NCBI RefSeq assembly: GCF_016097555.1
Contig: NC_054706.1
Span: 79,066,353 to 79,130,352 of the forward strand
Direction: 5' to 3'
Origin: Gigantopelta aegis
Taxonomy: Eukaryota > Mollusca > Gastropoda > Neomphalida > Peltospiridae
DNA: 64,000 nt
The position numbers were made by a program, and so were the translations under genes. The notes below the pieces were generated by a model. The model was not told the origin of the DNA and did no database searches. It was given only the letters and a program-made list of their open reading frames with translations. The stretch's first letter is position 1. Each line of letters starts with the position of its first letter. Below, piece after piece: positions 8,253-47,109 of this stretch.

Positions 8253-9008
8253 GTTCCAACAGTTCCACTAACGGTATTAATGAGCCATATACGAATGTAG
8301 TTGAGATTAGTACGTTAATAATTGACCCTGACCTTCACTAGCGACTCGACTGGTGTACTGATTATGTCTGTTGTTAGCGCAATACGAAAGAAATATTTGT
8401 TGGTTAAAGATTAGCAGAAGAAAACTAAAAATTCCTGTGTTAGAACATTTTATATAGTTCAAACTGGTTCAGAACACAAGGTAAATACTAGAATTTGGGA
8501 AGAACTTTCGTTTGGCGCCGTCACTAACCCTAATCCTAACTATTTATGATAAGTATTTATAATGTTCTTTATATGTGACAGTGCCAAAGGAAAGTCCTAT
8601 CCTTAAGACTTAACCACACTTACTACATCCTAAAGGGTAGTCCATGAAGTGGGGGCAGCTGGCTTTTGTAAATGTATGTGTGATGACAGTATCAGTAACT
8701 GGGTCTGTGTGATAGCTTTAGGCTTGTGTTCTGTTAGTGCAATTCCTCTTGTGATTTCTCATGCACACATCCATCCACAGAAATGTGCATTTTTCCATTT
8801 GCATACCTGCATTTTCGCAAATGCATTCCTTGTATTATTGGATTTATTATTGTTAATAAAGTACTCATTAGGTACTAAGAACCAATGCCCTCCATGTCCC
8901 TTTTCCCAGACGTTTTCTTCTATGTGTTGGTAACTTGGTTATTATTACTATTTTATTTCTGTGATCCCTATGTATAATGGTAACAGATGTCAACTACTAC
9001 TGTTTAGG

Positions 9009-37370: not shown

Positions 37371-40300
37371 ATGGCAGCTACCAGCAGTAGAATGTTTCGA
37401 AGTTTTTGCACAAAACTTCTTACACAGCAAACAAGAACATGCTTAATGTCAATGTCTGTTGTACAGACGCGACTTATGTCTAGTGGTGTGTGCATTGTTT
37501 CTATTTATTTTGCATGTCATATGCTTAGGAACTGTAGCAATGCTGTTTCAGCTGGGGGAGGTCCATTTTATCTGGGCATATATTGTATTTTCTATTTGAT
37601 GTACAGTTAATTTATTTTTGTGCTCCAATTTATTTTTGCCAACACGTTGTTTTGGGGACACACACGGTATAATATCCGCCTGGTCCCCCCTTTATTATAT
37701 TAGGGTTAGGCTTAGGGAAGGAGGGACTGGGCAGATATTTTTCCGGGCGATCAATCCAGCAACTTATCTGACTTTGAGCAAACTCTCTGTAAGTTTGGAA
37801 AAATATCCGCCCGGTCCCCCCTTCCCCTAACCCTAACCCTAACCCTAACCCTAACCCCAACCCCAACCCCAACCCCAACCCCAACCCCAACCCCAACCCC
37901 AACCCCAACCCCAACCCCAACCCTAGTCCTAACCCCAGCCATAACCCTAACCCTAACCCTCAACCCTAACTAAAAATAATAATGGAGGGGACCGGGCGGA
38001 TATTATACCGTAAGTTTAACTGAGATACATTACAGTATATCAGTTAGAAAAACTCTACTTGTACCTGTGCTTTTGCAGAATGGGGCCAAGTTACATAAAT
38101 TAATGGGGATGTTCAGCAGTTGTGTAGTACTAGTGTACATATTAATATGTATGGTAAAAGTTAGCCCTCCCCTTATTGATAATGATATTTAGGGGAAGGC
38201 AAGAGGAAACAACCAACACTACATGTTAAAACCTGACGCCCCTATAACCTGCACTACTTTCTTGTGATGATGTATAGCAAAGTGTGTATCTTCATGTAGC
38301 GTTGGTACTGTTGACAACATGTAAGTTTAATGTCATGACTGGACTCGAGAATAATCAAACTTAAGCTCTGTGGCATCAGATTTAGTTGTCGAGGATTGCT
38401 TTAGCATTATGTACACAAAGTTTCCTCTAGCCTTCCCAAACATATCAGTATCGATAAAGGGGAGGGCTGGAGGTGACTCGAGCTAGGTAGAAGTAAGTTT
38501 GTTTTGTTTAACAGCATCACTAGAGCACATTGATAAATTAATCATCAGCTGTTGGATGTAAAATATTTGTTAAATGGATGTTTGTACTAACTTACAGGAG
38601 GATATGAATACCTTATTGTTGATACAAAAGGCGAGAAGAAGAACGTCGGGTATATTCAGCTGAACCGACCAAAGGCCTTGAATGCTCTGTGCGATGCATT
38701 GATGGTGGAAGTGACGAGAGCTCTCGATGAGTTTGAGAAAGATAAAACCATTGGCTGTATTGTGCTCACCGGCACTGAGAAAGCATTCGCAGGTCAGTTT
38801 ATTATCTATACATAATGTTAGTGATGGATATTCTATTAAAAATGGAGCTGTATTTCTGTTAATGCTCAGTGAAGTAATGGCTGAGTCAGGGCTAGTTGAG
38901 GGCAGGTGGTGTAGCAACGTGATATTGGACAAAATGGTTCCCACAAAATAAGTTTTATAAGAGGCAAGCTGTGTTAGGGACAGTCCTGAGTTTACAACCA
39001 TTGTAAAATGTTTCCTACCAATAGAGCCTTTTCAATGACGTAACATACAAATTAAATACATTTTCTTGTTTAAAATATAAGTGTCTGTATTTAAAAGGTT
39101 GCTTGTAGTAGCCCAAACTGGATTTTACCTCCCAATAATTTTGTATGTACCAAAAAATATATATAACAAATTAAAGTAAAAACTGAATGCTAGTGCTACA
39201 GATCTTAGTATACGACCGCAAACACATTCGATATACAGATACTGGTATTCTAAACAAGAAAAGGAGTGGGACATAGCTCAGTGATATAGCACTCTACTGG
39301 TGCGCGATCAATCCATTGGGCTATTTCTCGTTCCAGCCAGTGCTCCACAACTGGTGTAATAAAGGCCATTGTATGTACTACCCTGTCTGTGGGATGGCAC
39401 ATATAAAAGATCCCTTGCTGCTAATCGAAAAGAGTAGCCCAAGAAGTGGCAACAGCAGGTTTCCTCTCTCAATATCTGTGTGGTCCTTAACCATACGTCT
39501 GACACCATATAACTGAAAATAAAACATTTCCTTCATTCTAAACAAGAAAATATATTTAGTATGAAATTGTAGTTGCCAACAAGGCTCTGTTATCGCAAAC
39601 ATCTTACAATGGCTGCAAACTCAGGATAGTCCCGTAAAGATATACTTGTCTAAACAGTTTGTAATGTATATAGCATTAATACCAATAGTGATATAGAAAC
39701 TGTTATCATTTAGTTACTGTTACCGGAAGTGCTATTATAACAATGCCTGGAAGTGTATCCTAGGGATATGGCATGGCCAAGCAGACGACTAGTCTATGTT
39801 CTCAGTATGAATAAAAGCCACTATCATTTATGAAATGAGTTTGTTGAGCCAGAACGTTATTCAGTTGATATTGGCAAATTGTTTTTTTAATTATTACATC
39901 TGTTTCTGGTAATTAGTAAGTATCTGAAATGACAACAATTCTTCAGTTAGCCATTGGGTCCAAAGTCCAATTCAAACTGGTATTGATCTTTATTCTGTCA
40001 CATTATACCAGGAACTGATTAACAGTTGATGATTTAATTTATTTTATTTTTTACAACTAATTGATATTTTCTGTTAAGCCAGTTTTCAGCTATAGTATAG
40101 TATTTTCTTGAAAACGATTAAAATGTGGTTAATTTAAGGAGTATTTTATTAGCAAAGACTAAATTTATATTGAAGCAACTAAAATTAGCAATGTGTTTCT
40201 TTGGCAGTGTACATGGTGAGCACTGTGTATCCACAGAATTTTGTTGATAAAACATTTTTATGTAAAGTGAAAATGAGGGGTTAGAATTCTTATAATAGGG

Positions 40301-43300
40301 GTGGCATGTAGTCCAGTGGTAAAGCGCTCACCTGATATGCAGTCAGTCTGGGATCGATCCCCGTTGGTGGACCCACTGGGCTATTTCTCGTTCCAGCCAG
40401 TGTACCATTACTGGTATATCAAAGGCTGTGGTATGTGCTATCCTGTCTGGAATGGTGCATATAAAAGATCTCTTGCTACTAATGGAAAAATGTAACAGGT
40501 TTTCTAATACTATATATCAAAATGACCAAATATTTGATATCCAATAGCTGATGATTAATAAATCAATGTGCTCTAGTGGTGTCGTTAAACAAAATATACC
40601 TAGATAAACTTATTTCTGTTTCATTTAATGTATTATTTTTACAAATGAAAATTAATGTAAGGTTTCGGTTTACTCAGGTTTTCCTTGTTCTTCCAGCTGG
40701 GGCAGATATTAAAGAGATGCAGAACCAGACTTTCGCTCGGGTTTTTGGGGGAAACTTTCTAAATCACTGGACAAGGCTGGCAGACTGCAGAAAGCCTGTT
40801 ATTGCTGCTGTCAATGGTTTCGCTGTATGTAATACATGTGAACAGTGTCGTGTTCAAACGTAATCCATTAATCAGCTTGCAGAGCCATGATGCCCTTTTA
40901 CAAACGGCCGCAGGGAACAGAAAGTAATCTTTTTGGTGCAATCACTTTACTAATAATCAAAGATGATAGGTTTCCAGATTTTTCGTCTATTCAGTATTTT
41001 TAATTTTTTCCGATGTTTGTCCAAAATTCTCAAAATTCTCCATCCAAAACTTACGACATGTGCAGGCCTCACGATTTGGCCAGTCTTTATACCAGAACAC
41101 CAATGTTGATTTTTATTTTATTGTCCAGGTTTTTTTTCCTTTTCAAAACCAACTTCCATCTCTGAATAGTGGTATTCACATGACCTGTATTGCACTGCAC
41201 TGAAGGTGTCCACTGTTCGTGTCATTTCAGTTGGTGCTGACATTGAAGAAATGAGACACAAATCATTCAGAGATCTTCTTATCACTGATTTCCCTTCTGC
41301 TCTGTCCGTCGTGGCCTATGCCAAGAAACCTGTTATAGCCGCCGTCAATGGATATGCTGTATGTAGCTATACGATGGTCATTGACTGATGTCACATTTAA
41401 TACTTAACATTCTCTCCATTCGTGGAGATTAGTGTATATGTCAATGGATATGCTGTATGTAGCTATACGATGGTCACTGACTGACGCCCACATTTAATAC
41501 TTAGCATTCTCTCCATTCGTGGAGATTAGTGTATATCTGACGTTCAAGGACAAGTTGTCAATTTGTCTCAACTTTTATAATGTTCAAGTACTAAAGCAGG
41601 GCTTGAAGACCTCACAAAGTTTAGAGGTGAGATTAGAAGAATTAGTTATATGCAAGTGTATGGGATATTAAAAGTTTTGCCTGAGGTGGTAGAAACTTCA
41701 TCCCATGGAAAAGATTTCCCAAGGCCCCAGGTCAGCATTTCATAAACCAAACAAACCCCATCTCCCTTCTGCAGGGTTGGAAACAAACGTGGGACACTTG
41801 AGCTGTTCCCTGTGTTGTATGACAGAAACCGATTTTACTTTTCCAGCCGCAGAAATGGCATTAAGCTTTGCTTTTAGGTCTAAATTACCTTATCCCTGTT
41901 TAGCACCATTTCTCGTACACCAAGTCCTATATTAATAAAAAATCTAGTTTCAATCAGTTCTTTTTAATAAATTATTTAATTTTTATTAAAATTATTTTTA
42001 TTACTTAATTTTTAGACCCCAGACCAGATTATGGTAGATGATATATTAAAACATTTAAGTTTACAGAATTCTTTATTACAGTTATGTTGTTAAAATGAAT
42101 TGATTTATTTATGACCTAATTAAGGATATGCTGGAATTTTTGTGTCGCCACAATGAAGGAATTAATTTATGTTTAATGAATGCAGTGGTCATTTGTCCTG
42201 AAGTTTTGCCTCTTTTTTTTTTCTTCTTGTTTTTTTGAAGATATTGGCATGCAAGTTTATTAATGGATTACGTTTGCTCTGTAGACTCGAGGTAGACGGA
42301 GACCTAGTGTTTTAAGTTTTAACTAATACCCAGTATTTTATTCCAGTGGGAGATGACATTAAAGAAATGCATCCACGATGTTTTCATGACGTTTTTCAAA
42401 CTAATTTCCCGTGTGGTTTGGATAGTATATCACACTGTAGAAAACCGGCAATTGCTGCTGTAAATGGATATTGTGTGCGTTCTTATTTCTTTCAAAAATA
42501 TTCCATTAGAAATGTAAAAACTTGAAGTGTGCACTTCTTAAAAAGAAATCACCAGCATGTACCAGGTGTTTGTATTGCTAGGCTTCTACAAAGGTAGTCA
42601 CACAAAAATTATATTATTGAATTTGTGTTTGGTATGTTAAAAATTGATGCAAATTGAAATTAAAAATAACTATTTGATTATTTGGTAATCATCAATCATG
42701 GCACACAGTATTATACTTATTGCTCAAAGCTTTTTAACATTTTGTTTTTGTTGTGATTTTTCATAAATATACCAGATTATTTCTACACAATCACTGTGAA
42801 CACTGAATATTTAAAATAGTGGTTTATAGGGGTGATTGTTTGTTGGACCATAAGTTAAACAATAATTATGAATGAAAAATTGTGCATTTTCGTTTCAGTT
42901 AGGTGGAGGGTGTGAACTCGCTATGATGTGTGATATTATATATGCTGGAGAAAAGGCCAAATTCGGACAACCAGAAATACAGCTGGGAACCATTCCAGGT
43001 TAGATTCACTTGTTACTAGTCCCTTTCCAGTCCAATCAGAGGAGACTATAGGTTTTGTGTCTGTTGATCTGTCAGTCTGTCAGTCATTTCCAAATATGGT
43101 TTTCTGGACTTTGTTTTCGTAGTGCCTCAAAATAATGAGCTGAAAATTTATGTATATTTTTATCGTGTAGAGTTGCAAATCAAGTTTTTTTTAAACTTTC
43201 ATGGGGATTTGAATATTTGTAACAGAGTTATGACCCTTGAATGTAGGAGATTAGTTTGCCCAGTAGGAGACGTATTGTTTCAGCAATATATGGAGAATGC

Positions 43301-46300
43301 TTATTTTTGCACATACAGTTCTGCCTGTGTGATATCATTTTACTTTTCATTAGTCTGATTTAATGGAGAATGTTCTTATTCCACAACTGGGTTACATTGG
43401 GATTGAAAGAAAAAACATTACTGAGGTAATTTAGAACAGCACATGAAACAAATTCTAGGTTTTTGTCCCCATTCATTATAGGAATAAAGGCCACCCTCGT
43501 ATGTTTGAACCCGTGTAAATTAACACTAAGTTTAGTTAATCTACAAACCTGTAACACATTTGGATAAAGTTACAAGTGAATGAAACATGAATCTGTGACT
43601 TTGAAATGGTGAAATGCCCTCTAAAAATAGACTAAAACTCTACTCCATAGCTGATAATTCTCCGACACACGTGCGTTTTTAAAAATATGACAAATGCATT
43701 TTCTGATATTAAAAACACCAGGATGACTTAAAACATTTCAAATGTACGGAAATTGATAATCTAACCCATAAAATGTAAGTACAAAATATAACCACAAAAA
43801 AGCCCCTTTGAACAGAGACAAAGTTAAGATTGTTTGTATCACAGTGTCGTGCAATATGTCACAGAAGTAGGCCATTAGTTAACTGAATATTAAATCGGTA
43901 ATCAGAGTTTACATTGTCAGCCTTGAAGACATTTATTTTCACTATTTCATAAAGTGTATTGTGGTTACGTATTTGTTTGATTATTAATTTGTCAGTGTAC
44001 TAAGGTTAGTTGATACGAAAAAAAGAGAGAAAAAAGTTTTATTTAACGACACACTCAACACATTTTATTTAGGGTTATATGGCGTCAGACATATGGTTAA
44101 GGACCACACAGATTTTGAGAGGAAACCTGCTGTCGCCACTACATGGGCTACTCTTTCCGAATAGCAGCAAGGGATCTTTTATTTGCGCTTCCCACAGGCA
44201 GGATAGCACAAACCATGGCCTTTGTTGAACCAGTTATGGATCACTGGTCAGTACAAGTGGTTTACACCTACCCATTGAGCCTTGCGTAGCACTCACTCAG
44301 GGTTTGGAGTCGGTATCTGGATTAAAAATCCCATGCCTCGACTGGGATCCGAACCCATTACCTACCAGCCTAACCACGACGCCACCGAGGCCGGTCAGTT
44401 GATACGAAGAACAATTGTTTTAACAACTTGGACTTTTTCTAGTTAATTATTTTCAGATACTAATAATGAGTTTTTTCAAATGCTTTTTAAAATACTTTGT
44501 AGTACATGTACCTGTGATAAATGTGAACTGTATGATATATTTTGTTGTATTTGTCAGGTGCTGGGGGAACTCAACGACTCATTCGATCCATTGGAAAGTC
44601 AAAAGCAATGGAGATGGTGTTAACTGGAAACATGATAACAGCCCAGGAGGCTGAAAAAGCAGGTTTGTATTTATAATAAAAAAACATACATACATACATA
44701 CACGTGCGCGCACACACACACACACACATGTATATACTCCATCACAGATGAAGATATAAAATTGGTTATATTCCATCCAAGTGTTTGGTTTCATTTCATG
44801 TTAATTTGCTCATTTGTATTTACATTTTACATTACAATGTATTATGCACTCCAAATATTTTCTTTCCATACTAATCAGATCTCTCACCATAAGCATACGA
44901 GACGGGGGCGGAGGGGGCAACTGCCCCCTTGTGCTGGAGCAAAACCTCAAATTCGGACAAAAATACAGATATTCGGGCAAAATATGCTAAGTGCAGTAAG
45001 TAAGAGGTTAGGAATAGGGATAAATGTAGTGAGAGGTTAGGAATTGGGATAAATGCAGTGAAAGGTTAGGAATAGGGATAAATGCAGTGAAAGGTTAGGA
45101 ATAGGGATAAATGTAGTAAGTGAGAGGTTAGGGATAAATGCAGTGAGAGGTTAGGATTAGGCATAAATGCAGTGAGAGGTTAGGAATAGGGATAAATGCA
45201 GTGAGGTTAGGAATAGGGATAAATGCAATGAGAGGTTAGGAATAGGGATAAATGGAGTAAGTGAGAGGTTAGAAATAGGGATAAATGCAGTGAGAGGTTA
45301 GGGATAAATGCAGTGAGAGGTTAGAAATAGGGATAAATGCAGTGAGTGATAGGTTAAGAATAGGGATAAATGCAGTAAGTGATAGGTTAGGAATAGGGAT
45401 GCATGCAGTGAGAGGTTAGGATTAGGGATAAATGTAGTGAGAGGTTAGGAATAGGGATAAATGTAGTGAGAGGTTAGGAATAGGGATAAATGCAGTAAGT
45501 GATAGGTTAGGAATAGGGATGCATGCAGTGAGAGGTTAGGATTAGGGATGCATGCAGTGAGAGGTTAGGAATAGGAATAAATGCAGTAAGTGATAGGTTA
45601 GGAATAGGGATGCATGCAGTGAGAGGTTAGGATTAGGGATAAATGTAGTGAGAGGTTAGGAATAGGGATAAATGCAGTAAGTGATAGGTTAGGAATAGGG
45701 ATAAATGCAGTGAGAGGTTAGGAATAGGAATAACTGAAGTGAGAGGTTAGGAATAAATGAAGTGAGAGGTTAGGAATAGGGATAAATGCAGTAAGTGATA
45801 GGTTAGGAATAGGGATAAATGCAGTGAGAGATTAGGAATAGGGATAAATGCAGTAAGTGATAGGTTAGGAATAGGAATAAATGCAGTAAGTGATAGGTTA
45901 GGAATAGGGATAAATGCAGTGAGAGATTAGGAATAGGGATACATGCAGTAAGTGAGAGGTCAGGTTAAGTATTAATGAAAAGAAACGGTGATCAAAGCCT
46001 TCTATTAATTGATGATTTGCAGGTCTGGTGAGCAAAGTGTTTGAGCCTGCCAGTCTGGTGGACGAGGCGGTGAAGACGGCAGAGAAGATCGCCAGTTACT
46101 CTAAGCTAGTCGTGTCCATGTGTAAAGAAGCTGTCAATGCAGGTAAACAGTCAGACAATTTAGGTCCCGATTAATCTTGTATTAACTGGTGGAGGGGTGG
46201 GATATAGCTCAGTTGGCAAAGTGCTCACCCGAGGTGCTTGGTTGTACGGTTGAACCTTCTCGGTGGATCCATTCTCGGATATATCTTTTTACCCCAACTA

Positions 46301-47109
46301 GTTCTCCACGACTGGTATATCAAAGATCATGGTATGTGCTGTCTATTGGAAGGTGTTTATAAAAGATCCCTTGTTACTAATGGGAAAATGTAGCAGGTTT
46401 GCTCAGAAGACAAGAGTTAAAAGTTACCAAAAGTTTGATATGCAATAGCCGATGATTAGAAAATAAACACAAAGTTTTTCACTGATTTAATGCTTTATTT
46501 AAAAGTTTTTTGTTGTTTTTCCTTCTTTTCAGCAAATGAGATGACTTTGAGAGAAGGACTGCACTTTGAGAAAAGAATATTTCATAGTTCGTTTGCAACT
46601 GTAAGTTAGAGTTGTTTTTACATAACCACATTAAGATTCCTTGGGTTGGTTCTTTTGTGAGGCAAGGTGTCTTTCTGAAGTTTGTAAAGTGAAGATTAAT
46701 CAGTAATCTGCTTTTAACTACCATATGCACATCCATCTTAAAGTGTATCAAATACCTGCATTGTAACTTGAAAGAGATTTAATGTTCTTATTACTAGCCA
46801 CAGTGGTGTAGTGGTTACACCATCAGACATAACTAAAGCTGGTAGGTACTGGGTTCGCAGCCCATTCAGAATGACTTTAACAGATGAGTGGACGGGTGCA
46901 ATGACATTATTCTTCTCTCACTAACATTCTGTCCTGGACACACAGTTCAGATATCTCAGGTATGTGCACAGGACAGCGTGCTTGAACCTTAATTGAATAA
47001 ATGCTGTTATTTAAAATTAATTGTTATCCTATTTTATTTTCAGGAGGATCGTAAAGAGGGCATGTCCGCATTTATAGAAAAACGTCCGCCAAATTTTAAA
47101 GATGAATAA
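37371..47109 (+). CDS. ECHS1: enoyl-CoA hydratase, short chain, mitochondrial, with three alternative exon 3 copies
   Basis: Exons: 37371-37485, 38598-38792, one of three exon 3 copies (40697-40824 in the canonical form), 42899-42998, 44558-44662, 46023-46142, 46533-46600, 47044-47109. The canonical form is 897 nt, 298 residues (human 290). Residues 1-38 are rich in Arg, Ser and Thr and lack acids, as expected of a mitochondrial presequence. The crotonase fold shows [19 protein letters not shown] with the oxyanion-hole alanine (Ala106), GGGCE with Glu152 and QPE with Glu172. These equal rat Ala98, Glu144 and Glu164 with a constant offset of eight. The enzyme hydrates short-chain 2-enoyl-CoA in beta-oxidation and methacrylyl-CoA in valine breakdown. 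Intron 1 holds an element with telomere-like repeats; intron 5 holds a 29-bp array. Confidence 0.97.
37664..38011. mobile_element. inverted-repeat element with telomere-like core in ECHS1 intron 1
   Basis: The left end ACGGTATAATATCCGCCTGG and right end CCGGGCGGATATTATACCGT form an inverted repeat of over 30 bp with few mismatches. A second, inner inverted pair (TTAGGGTTAGG..GATATTTTTCC, 37701-37744, and GGAAAAATATCCGCCCGG, from 37798) lies inside. No ORF is seen. It looks like a foldback or MITE-type element that carries CCCTAA repeats. Confidence 0.7.
37823..37965. repeat. telomere-like array: CCCTAA then CCCCAA units
   Basis: About four CCCTAA units (the animal telomere repeat) are followed by about a dozen CCCCAA variants, then CCCTAA-type units again. 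It lies inside the inverted-repeat element, far from any gene end. Confidence 0.92.
38491..38577 (-). mobile_element. SINE family A tail fragment
   Basis: Only the 3' part (AAGTTTGTTTTGTTTAACAG to the TTGGATGT region) is present, ending just before the ECHS1 exon 2 acceptor. Confidence 0.8.
39266..39530 (+). mobile_element. SINE family B in ECHS1 intron 2
   Basis: The tRNA-like head (GTGGGACATAGCTCAGTGAT), body and short family B tail (AAATAAAACATTTCC) are recognised. The tail lacks the TGTGTTGAGTGCGTCG part. Confidence 0.85.
40298..40598 (+). mobile_element. SINE family A, full length, in ECHS1 intron 2
   Basis: This copy gives the family structure: box A in GTAGTCCAGTGGTAAAGCGC, box B in GGGATCGATCCCC, body with CATATAAAAGATCTCTTGCT, and tail CTAGTGGTGTCGTTAAACAA. 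It ends about 100 bp before exon 3a. Confidence 0.9.
40697..40824 (+). CDS. ECHS1: ECHS1 exon 3a (canonical)
   Basis: 128 nt, acceptor TTCCAG, donor GTATGT. Codes for 43 residues starting AGADIKEM and ending [11 protein letters not shown]. This is the copy closest to vertebrate ECHS1 ([15 protein letters not shown] versus FLNHW), so it probably makes the standard enzyme. Confidence 0.92.
41231..41358 (+). CDS. ECHS1: ECHS1 exon 3b (alternative)
   Basis: 128 nt, acceptor ATTTCAG, donor GTATGT, same phases as 3a. Codes for 43 residues starting VGADIEEM and ending [11 protein letters not shown]. It is 19/43 identical to 3a. The lysine of GADIKEM is glutamate. The middle ([17 protein letters not shown]) differs almost fully from 3a. 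Its 3' end and donor are duplicated 96 bp downstream. Confidence 0.88.
41344..41536 (+). repeat. 96-bp tandem duplication over the exon 3b donor
   Basis: The sequence from GTCAATGGATATGCTG (41344) is repeated at 41440 with few changes. The copy includes the last 15 nt of exon 3b and its GTATGT donor. Confidence 0.9.
42347..42474 (+). CDS. ECHS1: ECHS1 exon 3c (alternative)
   Basis: 128 nt, acceptor TTCCAG, donor GTGCGT (weaker than in 3a and 3b), same phases. Codes for 43 residues starting VGDDIKEM and ending [11 protein letters not shown]. It is 21/43 identical to both 3a and 3b. The oxyanion-hole alanine is aspartate, and the residue just before GGG becomes Cys-Leu rather than Ala-Leu across the exon 4 junction. 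The frame is fully open. Confidence 0.85.
43485..43795 (-). mobile_element. diverged copy of the GGGACATACCCTAG MITE family in ECHS1 intron 4
   Basis: It matches the complement of 19045-19415 over most of its length (for example ATTAACACTAAGTTTAGTTA and AAAACACCAGGATGAC). The left terminus is diverged and the right end is lost. Confidence 0.75.
44025..44396 (-). mobile_element. SINE family D in ECHS1 intron 4
   Basis: Nearly complete, from the tail (GTTTTATTTAACGACACACT) to the head (CCACCGAGGCCGGT). The flanks share GTTGATACGA (about 44009-44018 and 44398-44407), a likely target duplication. Confidence 0.88.
44900..45965. repeat. about 32 units of a 29-bp minisatellite in ECHS1 intron 5
   Basis: The core unit is GTTAGGAATAGGGATAAATG followed by CAGTGAGAG, with longer variants that add TAAGTGA and shorter ones that lack GAATAGG. 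It begins near 44990. Confidence 0.9.
46190..46468 (+). mobile_element. SINE family A, diverged, in ECHS1 intron 6
   Basis: A head with ATATAGCTCAGTTGGCAAAG, a body with TATAAAAGATCCCTTGTTAC and part of the tail (CAATAGCCGATGATTAG) can be seen. Confidence 0.8.
46794..47005 (+). mobile_element. SINE family C in ECHS1 intron 7
   Basis: The head (CAGTGGTGTAGTGGTTACAC, GGGTTCGCAGCCC), body and tail (GCTTGAACCTTAATTGAATA) are present. It ends about 35 bp before the acceptor of the last exon. Confidence 0.85.

What the first reader, a model, noticed from the sequence alone, without database searches (positions are those of the whole stretch)
40697..42474. Three tandem, mutually exclusive exon 3 copies in ECHS1
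Seen: three open exons of exactly 128 nt, each with AG acceptor and GT donor and the same entry and exit phases, lie between ECHS1 exon 2 and exon 4. All encode the GxDIxEM..KPxIAAVNG block. 128 is 2 modulo 3: using one copy keeps the frame into exon 4; using none, two or three breaks it. This is the signature of a mutually exclusive cassette. Established: mutually exclusive tandem exons occur in channels, Dscam and muscle genes. I know of no such cassette in ECHS1, whose vertebrate versions have one such exon. Inference: this animal makes three short-chain enoyl-CoA hydratase isoforms with different acyl-pocket segments. Protein identity between copies is only 44-49%, so they are old or fast-changing, yet none has a stop.
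Basis: partly seen in the sequence, partly recalled or inferred. Interest (0 to 1): 0.93.

Follow-up and report, generated by a model that had tools for sequence, protein, structure and literature searches.

The report
Three-way exon cassette in snail ECHS1
A deep-sea vent snail's gene for a fat-burning mitochondrial enzyme carries three interchangeable versions of the exon that lines its active site, and one alternative version recurs across five major snail lineages, so the enzyme is probably switched by splicing.

Summary
The window is from the vent snail Gigantopelta aegis. ECHS1 (eight exon positions, 37371-47109) has three 128-nt copies of exon 3, each open, with AG/GT sites and equal phases; only single use keeps the frame.

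The main new evidence is comparative. The second copy (b type) occurs in gene models of nine gastropod species; six looked-up lineages cover five subclasses. In five of six species with separate a and b proteins, the two are identical outside exon 3, so one gene makes both. The b type has its own signature: Trp120 absent in 11 of 11 b rows, present in 158 of 158 a rows; Pro117 in 11 of 11 against 0 of 158; Lys101 in 0 of 11 against 156 of 158. In the literature Trp120 shapes the acyl pocket and Lys101 binds the CoA phosphate. The third copy has one likely relative, in Biomphalaria.

I read this as a genuine, ancient mutually exclusive cassette that remodels the substrate site. A 27-nt non-repeat complementary pair that would loop out 3b may regulate it. 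No transcripts could be examined, so exclusive use is inferred. COQ2 in this genome carries the e/a exon pair linked to anaerobic rhodoquinone.

The parts
37371..37485 (+). ECHS1 exon 1 (start codon, mitochondrial presequence region)
38598..38792 (+). ECHS1 exon 2; leaves in phase 1
40697..40824 (+). exon 3a, canonical (a-type) copy; keeps Lys101 and Trp120 equivalents
40855..40881 (+). complementary arm X, 30 nt downstream of the 3a donor; 25 of 27 bases complementary to arm Y
41231..41358 (+). exon 3b, gastropod-wide alternative copy (b type)
   Evidence: NCBI protein P0001 is the 3b isoform
41440..41536 (+). second copy of a ~96-nt tandem duplication (first copy 41344-41439) that repeats the end of 3b and its donor; use of the second donor would add an in-frame stop
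42250..42276 (+). complementary arm Y, 70 nt upstream of exon 3c
42347..42474 (+). exon 3c, third copy (Ala98 to Asp, Lys101 kept, Trp120 to Leu); weakest donor of the gene in a simple score
42899..42998 (+). exon 4, constant; encodes LGGGCE, with the Gly141 and Glu144 equivalents (catalytic roles recalled)
44558..44662 (+). exon 5
46023..46142 (+). exon 6
46533..46600 (+). exon 7
47044..47109 (+). exon 8 with stop codon

Best explanation
ECHS1 of Gigantopelta aegis contains a real mutually exclusive exon cassette. A shared stretch (exons 1-2 and 4-8) carries the presequence, most of the fold and the catalytic glutamates. One of three 43-residue versions of the segment right after it (residues 96-138, rat numbering) is spliced in. 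That segment holds the oxyanion-hole residue Ala98, the CoA-phosphate contact Lys101 and the pocket residues 117-120. The a version is the ordinary animal enzyme. The b version, shared by gastropods of five subclasses, replaces Lys101, puts Pro at 117 and removes Trp120, which should loosen the acyl pocket and change how CoA is held; it also removes the Lys101 acetylation site reported in human ECHS1. The c version keeps Lys101 but has Asp at 98 and no Trp120. Exclusivity is enforced at least by frame: zero, two or three copies give premature stops far upstream of the last junction, hence expected nonsense-mediated decay. All three donors are weak, and a long intronic RNA duplex may loop out 3b. 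Shown here: anatomy, frames, residue signatures, recurrence across snails, single-gene origin of a and b in five other species. Inferred: exclusive use in transcripts, decay, altered substrate handling, the role of the duplex.
For: Anatomy, phases and stops. Only these three places in the window match the exon-3 HMM. The 3b isoform is a public G. aegis protein, 100% identical (P0001), and is the only Gigantopelta row in the two 120-row lists. b-type segments in nine species; five subclasses from six lineages looked up. In Haliotis, Pomacea, Littorina, Physella and Patella the a and b proteins have 0 differences over 99-102 N-terminal and 152 C-terminal residues (5 of 6 pairs); Haliotis and Physella entries are named isoform X1/X2. 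Signature counts (158 a, 11 b, 2 c rows; the 11 b rows are nine species): Trp120 158/0/0, Pro117 0/11/2, Lys101 156/0/2. Tree of 32 segments: a one group 96/90, b one group 84/84. b segments agree better with each other (mean 57.5%) than with a of the same species (49.7%). Differences among 3a, 3b, 3c concentrate at third codon positions (P 0.020, 0.005, 0.045) with dN 0.42-0.48 and dS too saturated to compute. Trp120 excludes a twisted acyl group that MFE1, with Leu there, admits (PMC5715344, one passage); Lys101 binds the enoyl-CoA phosphate and its acetylation inactivates human ECHS1 (PMC5587591, passages).
Against: No RNA reads were available. All b-type rows come from ncbi/uniref/nr entries; none of the lgn, jgi or ena rows in the two lists is b type. 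Two annotated proteins (Patella P0004, Biomphalaria P0007) contain two or three copies in a row, and Plakobranchus P0026 fuses part of a with b; I take these as gene-model errors but cannot prove it. Human K101Q nearly abolishes activity, so b might be a poor enzyme. c has one likely counterpart, with only 49% identity, a long branch, a different exon order (a-c-b) and KF instead of KP. The c-segment database search returned no candidate. Third-position P values are modest and the test does not separate old from recent selection.
Confidence: 0.8

Rival explanations
1. The extra exons chiefly tune ECHS1 output: skipping or double inclusion yields frameshifted, decayed mRNA, so the cassette is a dimmer rather than a source of distinct enzymes.
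For: All five wrong combinations give stops 376-625 nt before the last junction. Arms X and Y would bring the 3a donor near the 3c acceptor, favouring an unproductive 3a-3c join. The duplicated 3b donor would add a stop.
Against: A dimmer needs no conserved coding sequence, yet b segments keep an open frame and a shared signature across nine species, and b forms are annotated as full-length proteins.
Confidence: 0.1
2. b and c forms are made but are weak or inactive subunits that modulate the ECHS1 hexamer or escape acetylation control, rather than enzymes with a new substrate.
For: b lacks Lys101 in 11 of 11 rows, and removing that charge in human ECHS1 virtually abolished activity. c has Asp at the oxyanion-hole position.
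Against: The catalytic exon 4 is shared and intact in every isoform. b has Lys at position 106 (rat) in 8 of 11 rows, a possible substitute contact (a rows vary there, 24 of 158 Lys). Bradybaena has a b-type protein encoded apart from its a-type gene, which suggests a stand-alone role.
Confidence: 0.15
3. 3b and 3c are dead relics of exon duplication that still look open by chance.
For: 3c has the lowest donor score in the gene and few relatives; no transcripts seen here.
Against: Conserved signature in nine species, identical flanks in five species' a/b pairs, exact length, phases and splice sites in all three. For 3b this is very unlikely; for 3c it is weaker.
Confidence: 0.04

Closest known systems
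COQ-2 exons 6a/6e (C. elegans, parasitic helminths, annelids, molluscs; PMC7434440, passages read)
   Same: Mitochondrial metabolic enzyme; tandem exons of length 2 modulo 3 (134 nt in C. elegans); swap remodels the enzyme core; the a form is pan-eukaryotic, the e form restricted to some phyla including molluscs. The pair is present in this genome (L030 about 2617-2747 and 8412-8545).
   Different: Unrelated enzyme; two copies, not three; there the substrate switch was tested genetically and RNA-seq supports exclusive use.
Alternative oxidase exon 10A/10B in the oyster Crassostrea virginica (PMC5589949, abstract read)
   Same: Duplicated exon in a mollusc mitochondrial enzyme; one form conserved, the other with changes around functional sites; the variant form rises under air exposure.
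   Different: 3'-terminal exon pair in another gene; described in an oyster, not a gastropod-wide internal cassette.
RNA-structure-controlled mutually exclusive exons (docking site and selectors, bidirectional pairing; PMC6071210, abstract and Discussion read)
   Same: Long-range intronic complementarity among tandem exons of equal length; looping out of an exon.
   Different: I found one strong pair only, not one docking site with several competing selectors, and no cross-species conservation could be tested.
Rat/human ECHS1 and peroxisomal MFE1 hydratase domain
   Same: The three isoforms align over the mature enzyme to solved ECHS1 (a 390.9 bits, c 369.2 bits to 9rgq_A). b and c lose Trp120; Leu is at that position in MFE1.
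   Different: I found no report of a spliced exon-3 choice in either.

Membership tests
Mutually exclusive exon cassette | Tandem homologous exons between the same constant exons | tested here: met
Mutually exclusive exon cassette | Equal length and phases; only single inclusion keeps the frame | tested here: met
Mutually exclusive exon cassette | Both forms exist as products of one gene | tested here: met
   a and b proteins identical outside exon 3 in 5 of 6 species pairs; gene models, not reads; for G. aegis itself only the b form was seen as a protein record
Mutually exclusive exon cassette | One and only one copy in mature transcripts | not testable with these tools
   no RNA reads available
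Docking-site/selector regulated cassette | One docking site pairing with several competing selectors | tested here: not met
   one strong pair X:Y (-34.3 kcal/mol); the next partners of X and Y are -19.4 and -18.2, within the background best of -25.9 for 60 random 27-mers
ECHS1 (short-chain enoyl-CoA hydratase) | Full-length similarity to solved ECHS1 with the catalytic exon intact | tested here: met
   isoforms a and c aligned; b is named enoyl-CoA hydratase; catalytic residue roles recalled
ECHS1 (short-chain enoyl-CoA hydratase) | Hydratase activity of each isoform | not testable with these tools
   needs enzyme assay

The most novel reading that the evidence does not exclude
Gastropod ECHS1 is a splice-switched enzyme whose b (and c) form works in low-oxygen mitochondrial metabolism, for example on branched or bulky enoyl-CoAs or in the reducing direction of beta-oxidation, and is switched together with COQ2e (rhodoquinone) as one splicing programme for anaerobiosis; in G. 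aegis a 27-bp intronic RNA duplex gates the b exon.
Probability: 0.12. Interest if true: 0.9.

Novelty: new member of a known kind. Interest (0 to 1): 0.72.

Why it matters
Mutually exclusive exons are best known from channels, Dscam and muscle genes. Here one swaps the substrate-site segment of a core beta-oxidation and valine-breakdown enzyme, is old enough to be shared by five gastropod subclasses, and changes Lys101, an acetylation site with reported nutrient control in human ECHS1, and Trp120, which shapes the acyl pocket. With COQ2 and oyster AOX it would be a third mollusc mitochondrial enzyme altered by a duplicated exon, making the idea of a splicing-driven mitochondrial switch in molluscs directly testable with existing RNA-seq and proteomics.

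Tried and rejected
Transposon origin of the X/Y arms: rejected, since with up to 3 mismatches the 27-mer occurs only at these two places in 1.149 Gb. Strength of pairing alone as proof of function: rejected. X:Y scores 55 against at most 44 in 30 resampled sequences, but 7 of 21 segments of 4.1 kb (15 from the window, 6 from L029-L031) hold a pair of 55 or more with arms over 300 nt apart. Of three such or similar pairs checked, two are repeat families (583 and 1391 places) and one, in the COQ2 intron, is not repetitive, so non-repeat pairs are not unique to ECHS1.

The stronger pair in intron 2 (38977-39013/39597-39633, score 62) was rejected as a repeat: 41 matches including itself for its first 175 nt, with only 40 of 2300 candidates scored.

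A second ECHS1 gene in this genome: none found; other matches to the c isoform outside the locus are at most 55% identical (other crotonases).

Region search with the c segment gave no candidate. COQ2 was first sought at a wrong place (L029) before L026/L030. Dating by dS failed (saturated). Splice-site scores used a recalled human-like matrix. Whether the a/b/c split predates molluscs cannot be told from 43 columns. Absence of b in bivalves, chitons and other phyla is only absence from two capped 120-row lists (165 distinct proteins).

Full report
What was checked. I rebuilt the whole gene: eight exon positions, 298 residues with any single copy. None, two or three copies give stops 376-625 nt before the last junction. 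An HMM of exon 3 from other proteins hits only these three places among 2110 open stretches of the window.

Whose gene. The 3b isoform is 100% identical to an NCBI protein of Gigantopelta aegis (P0001), a vent snail of subclass Neomphalina. It is the only Gigantopelta row in the two 120-row lists, with one member sequence, so the public model seems to use 3b and not the canonical 3a. A whole-genome search found no second ECHS1; matches elsewhere are at most 55% identical.

The copies are old and shared. The two lists give 165 distinct proteins; 164 yield 169 exon-3 segments, and one (P0068) gives none. b-type segments occur in nine gastropods: Gigantopelta, Haliotis cracherodii, Patella caerulea, Pomacea, Littorina, Physella, Biomphalaria glabrata, Plakobranchus and Bradybaena. 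Six lineages were looked up and cover five subclasses. An a-type segment is present in all nine, in Plakobranchus only as part of a fused model. Where separate a and b proteins exist in a species, five of six pairs (Haliotis, Pomacea, Littorina, Physella, Patella) are identical outside exon 3, the mark of one gene with alternative exons. The sixth, Bradybaena, has a and b on different contigs with 31 of 152 C-terminal differences: separate genes there, perhaps duplication followed by division of the exons (inference).

Signature. With Gigantopelta a and c added, 171 rows were counted: 158 a, 11 b (nine species, three rows from Biomphalaria), 2 c. Position 96: Ala in 158 a; Val in 9 of 11 b (the Leu and Ser exceptions are in fused models) and 2 of 2 c. 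Lys101: 156 of 158 a, 0 of 11 b, 2 of 2 c. Pro117: 0, 11 and 2. Trp120: 158, 0 and 0. Position 98: Ala in a and b, Asp in both c rows. Rat numbering follows from the alignment to solved ECHS1 (offset 8). In a tree of 32 segments a is one group (96/90), b one group (84/84) and c is split off (90/78), on 43 columns only and with a very long Biomphalaria c branch. Differences among the three G. aegis copies are enriched at third codon positions (P 0.020, 0.005, 0.045).

What it should do. In a passage of PMC5715344 the bulky Trp120 of the monofunctional hydratase prevents a twisted acyl position that MFE1, with Leu there, allows. In passages of PMC5587591 Lys101 of human ECHS1 contacts the enoyl-CoA phosphate, K101Q virtually abolishes activity, and acetylation of Lys101 under nutrients inactivates the enzyme. 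The b exon changes both sites; c changes Trp120 and the oxyanion-hole residue (role of Ala98 recalled). So the swap should alter acyl choice and CoA binding, and b cannot be controlled through Lys101. A reduced-activity reading is not excluded. b rows carry Lys at 106 in 8 of 11, a possible replacement contact.

How splicing may be controlled. In a simple score with a recalled matrix the three copies have the lowest donors of the gene (-0.84, -0.84, -2.14 against 1.79 to 4.62). A 27-nt arm 30 nt after 3a pairs with one 70 nt before 3c (25 of 27 bases, -34.3 kcal/mol, -47.0 with flanks) and would put 3b in a 1368-nt loop. Both arms are found nowhere else in the genome at up to 3 mismatches, and flanking sequence does not match beyond the arms. 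Against over-reading: 7 of 21 comparable segments hold pairs as strong, mostly where repeats lie, and one of three checked control pairs is non-repetitive too. No second partner competes, so a docking/selector system is not shown.

Setting. COQ2 in this genome (partial match to TIGR01474, 6.3e-72, below its curated cut-off as the query was partial) has two tandem exons with the Phe-to-Leu and Ala-to-Ser differences described for the a and e forms in rhodoquinone-making animals (that these are the same two positions is my reading). An oyster AOX exon duplication responds to air exposure (PMC5589949, abstract). A joint anaerobic splicing programme is the bold reading; nothing here tests it. The G. 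aegis paper mentions fluctuating vent oxygen (passages).

Literature. Searches for mutually exclusive exons with ECHS1, enoyl-CoA hydratase, molluscs, snails or abalone listed no paper on this cassette; only open-licence PMC papers are held, and I saw listings only for most.

Noticed in passing
L030 (G000:C3) about 2617-2747 and 8412-8545: COQ2 of G. aegis has tandem e-like and a-like exons (about 131 and 134 nt), suggesting rhodoquinone capability in a vent snail.
   Followed up: partly
window 41344-41536: Tandem duplication of about 96 nt (about 98% alike in the aligned parts) repeats the end of exon 3b and its donor; the second donor at 41455 would extend 3b into a stop.
   Followed up: partly
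window 38977-39633: Repeat with long inverted ends in intron 2 (at least 40 other matches in the genome), with other repeated sequence inside it.
   Followed up: partly
Bradybaena similaris P0127 and P0145: a-type and b-type ECHS1 are separate genes on different contigs in this land snail, possibly exon division after gene or genome duplication.
   Followed up: partly
Biomphalaria glabrata P0007; Patella caerulea P0004: Gene models translate three (a, c-like, b) or two (a, b) exon-3 copies in a row; in Patella the 15-residue link may mean a very short a-b spacing, which could itself block double splicing.
   Followed up: no
G000:C6:42729340-42730680 (L010): COX1-like frame with 6 TGA codons inside a 103-Mb contig: a nuclear copy of mitochondrial DNA or a misplaced mitochondrial piece.
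   Followed up: no
window 37836-37960 and about 44990-45970: Runs of CCCTAA/CCCCAA-like units in intron 1 and a long array of AGGTTAGGAATAGGGATAAATGCAGTGAG-like units in intron 5.
   Followed up: no
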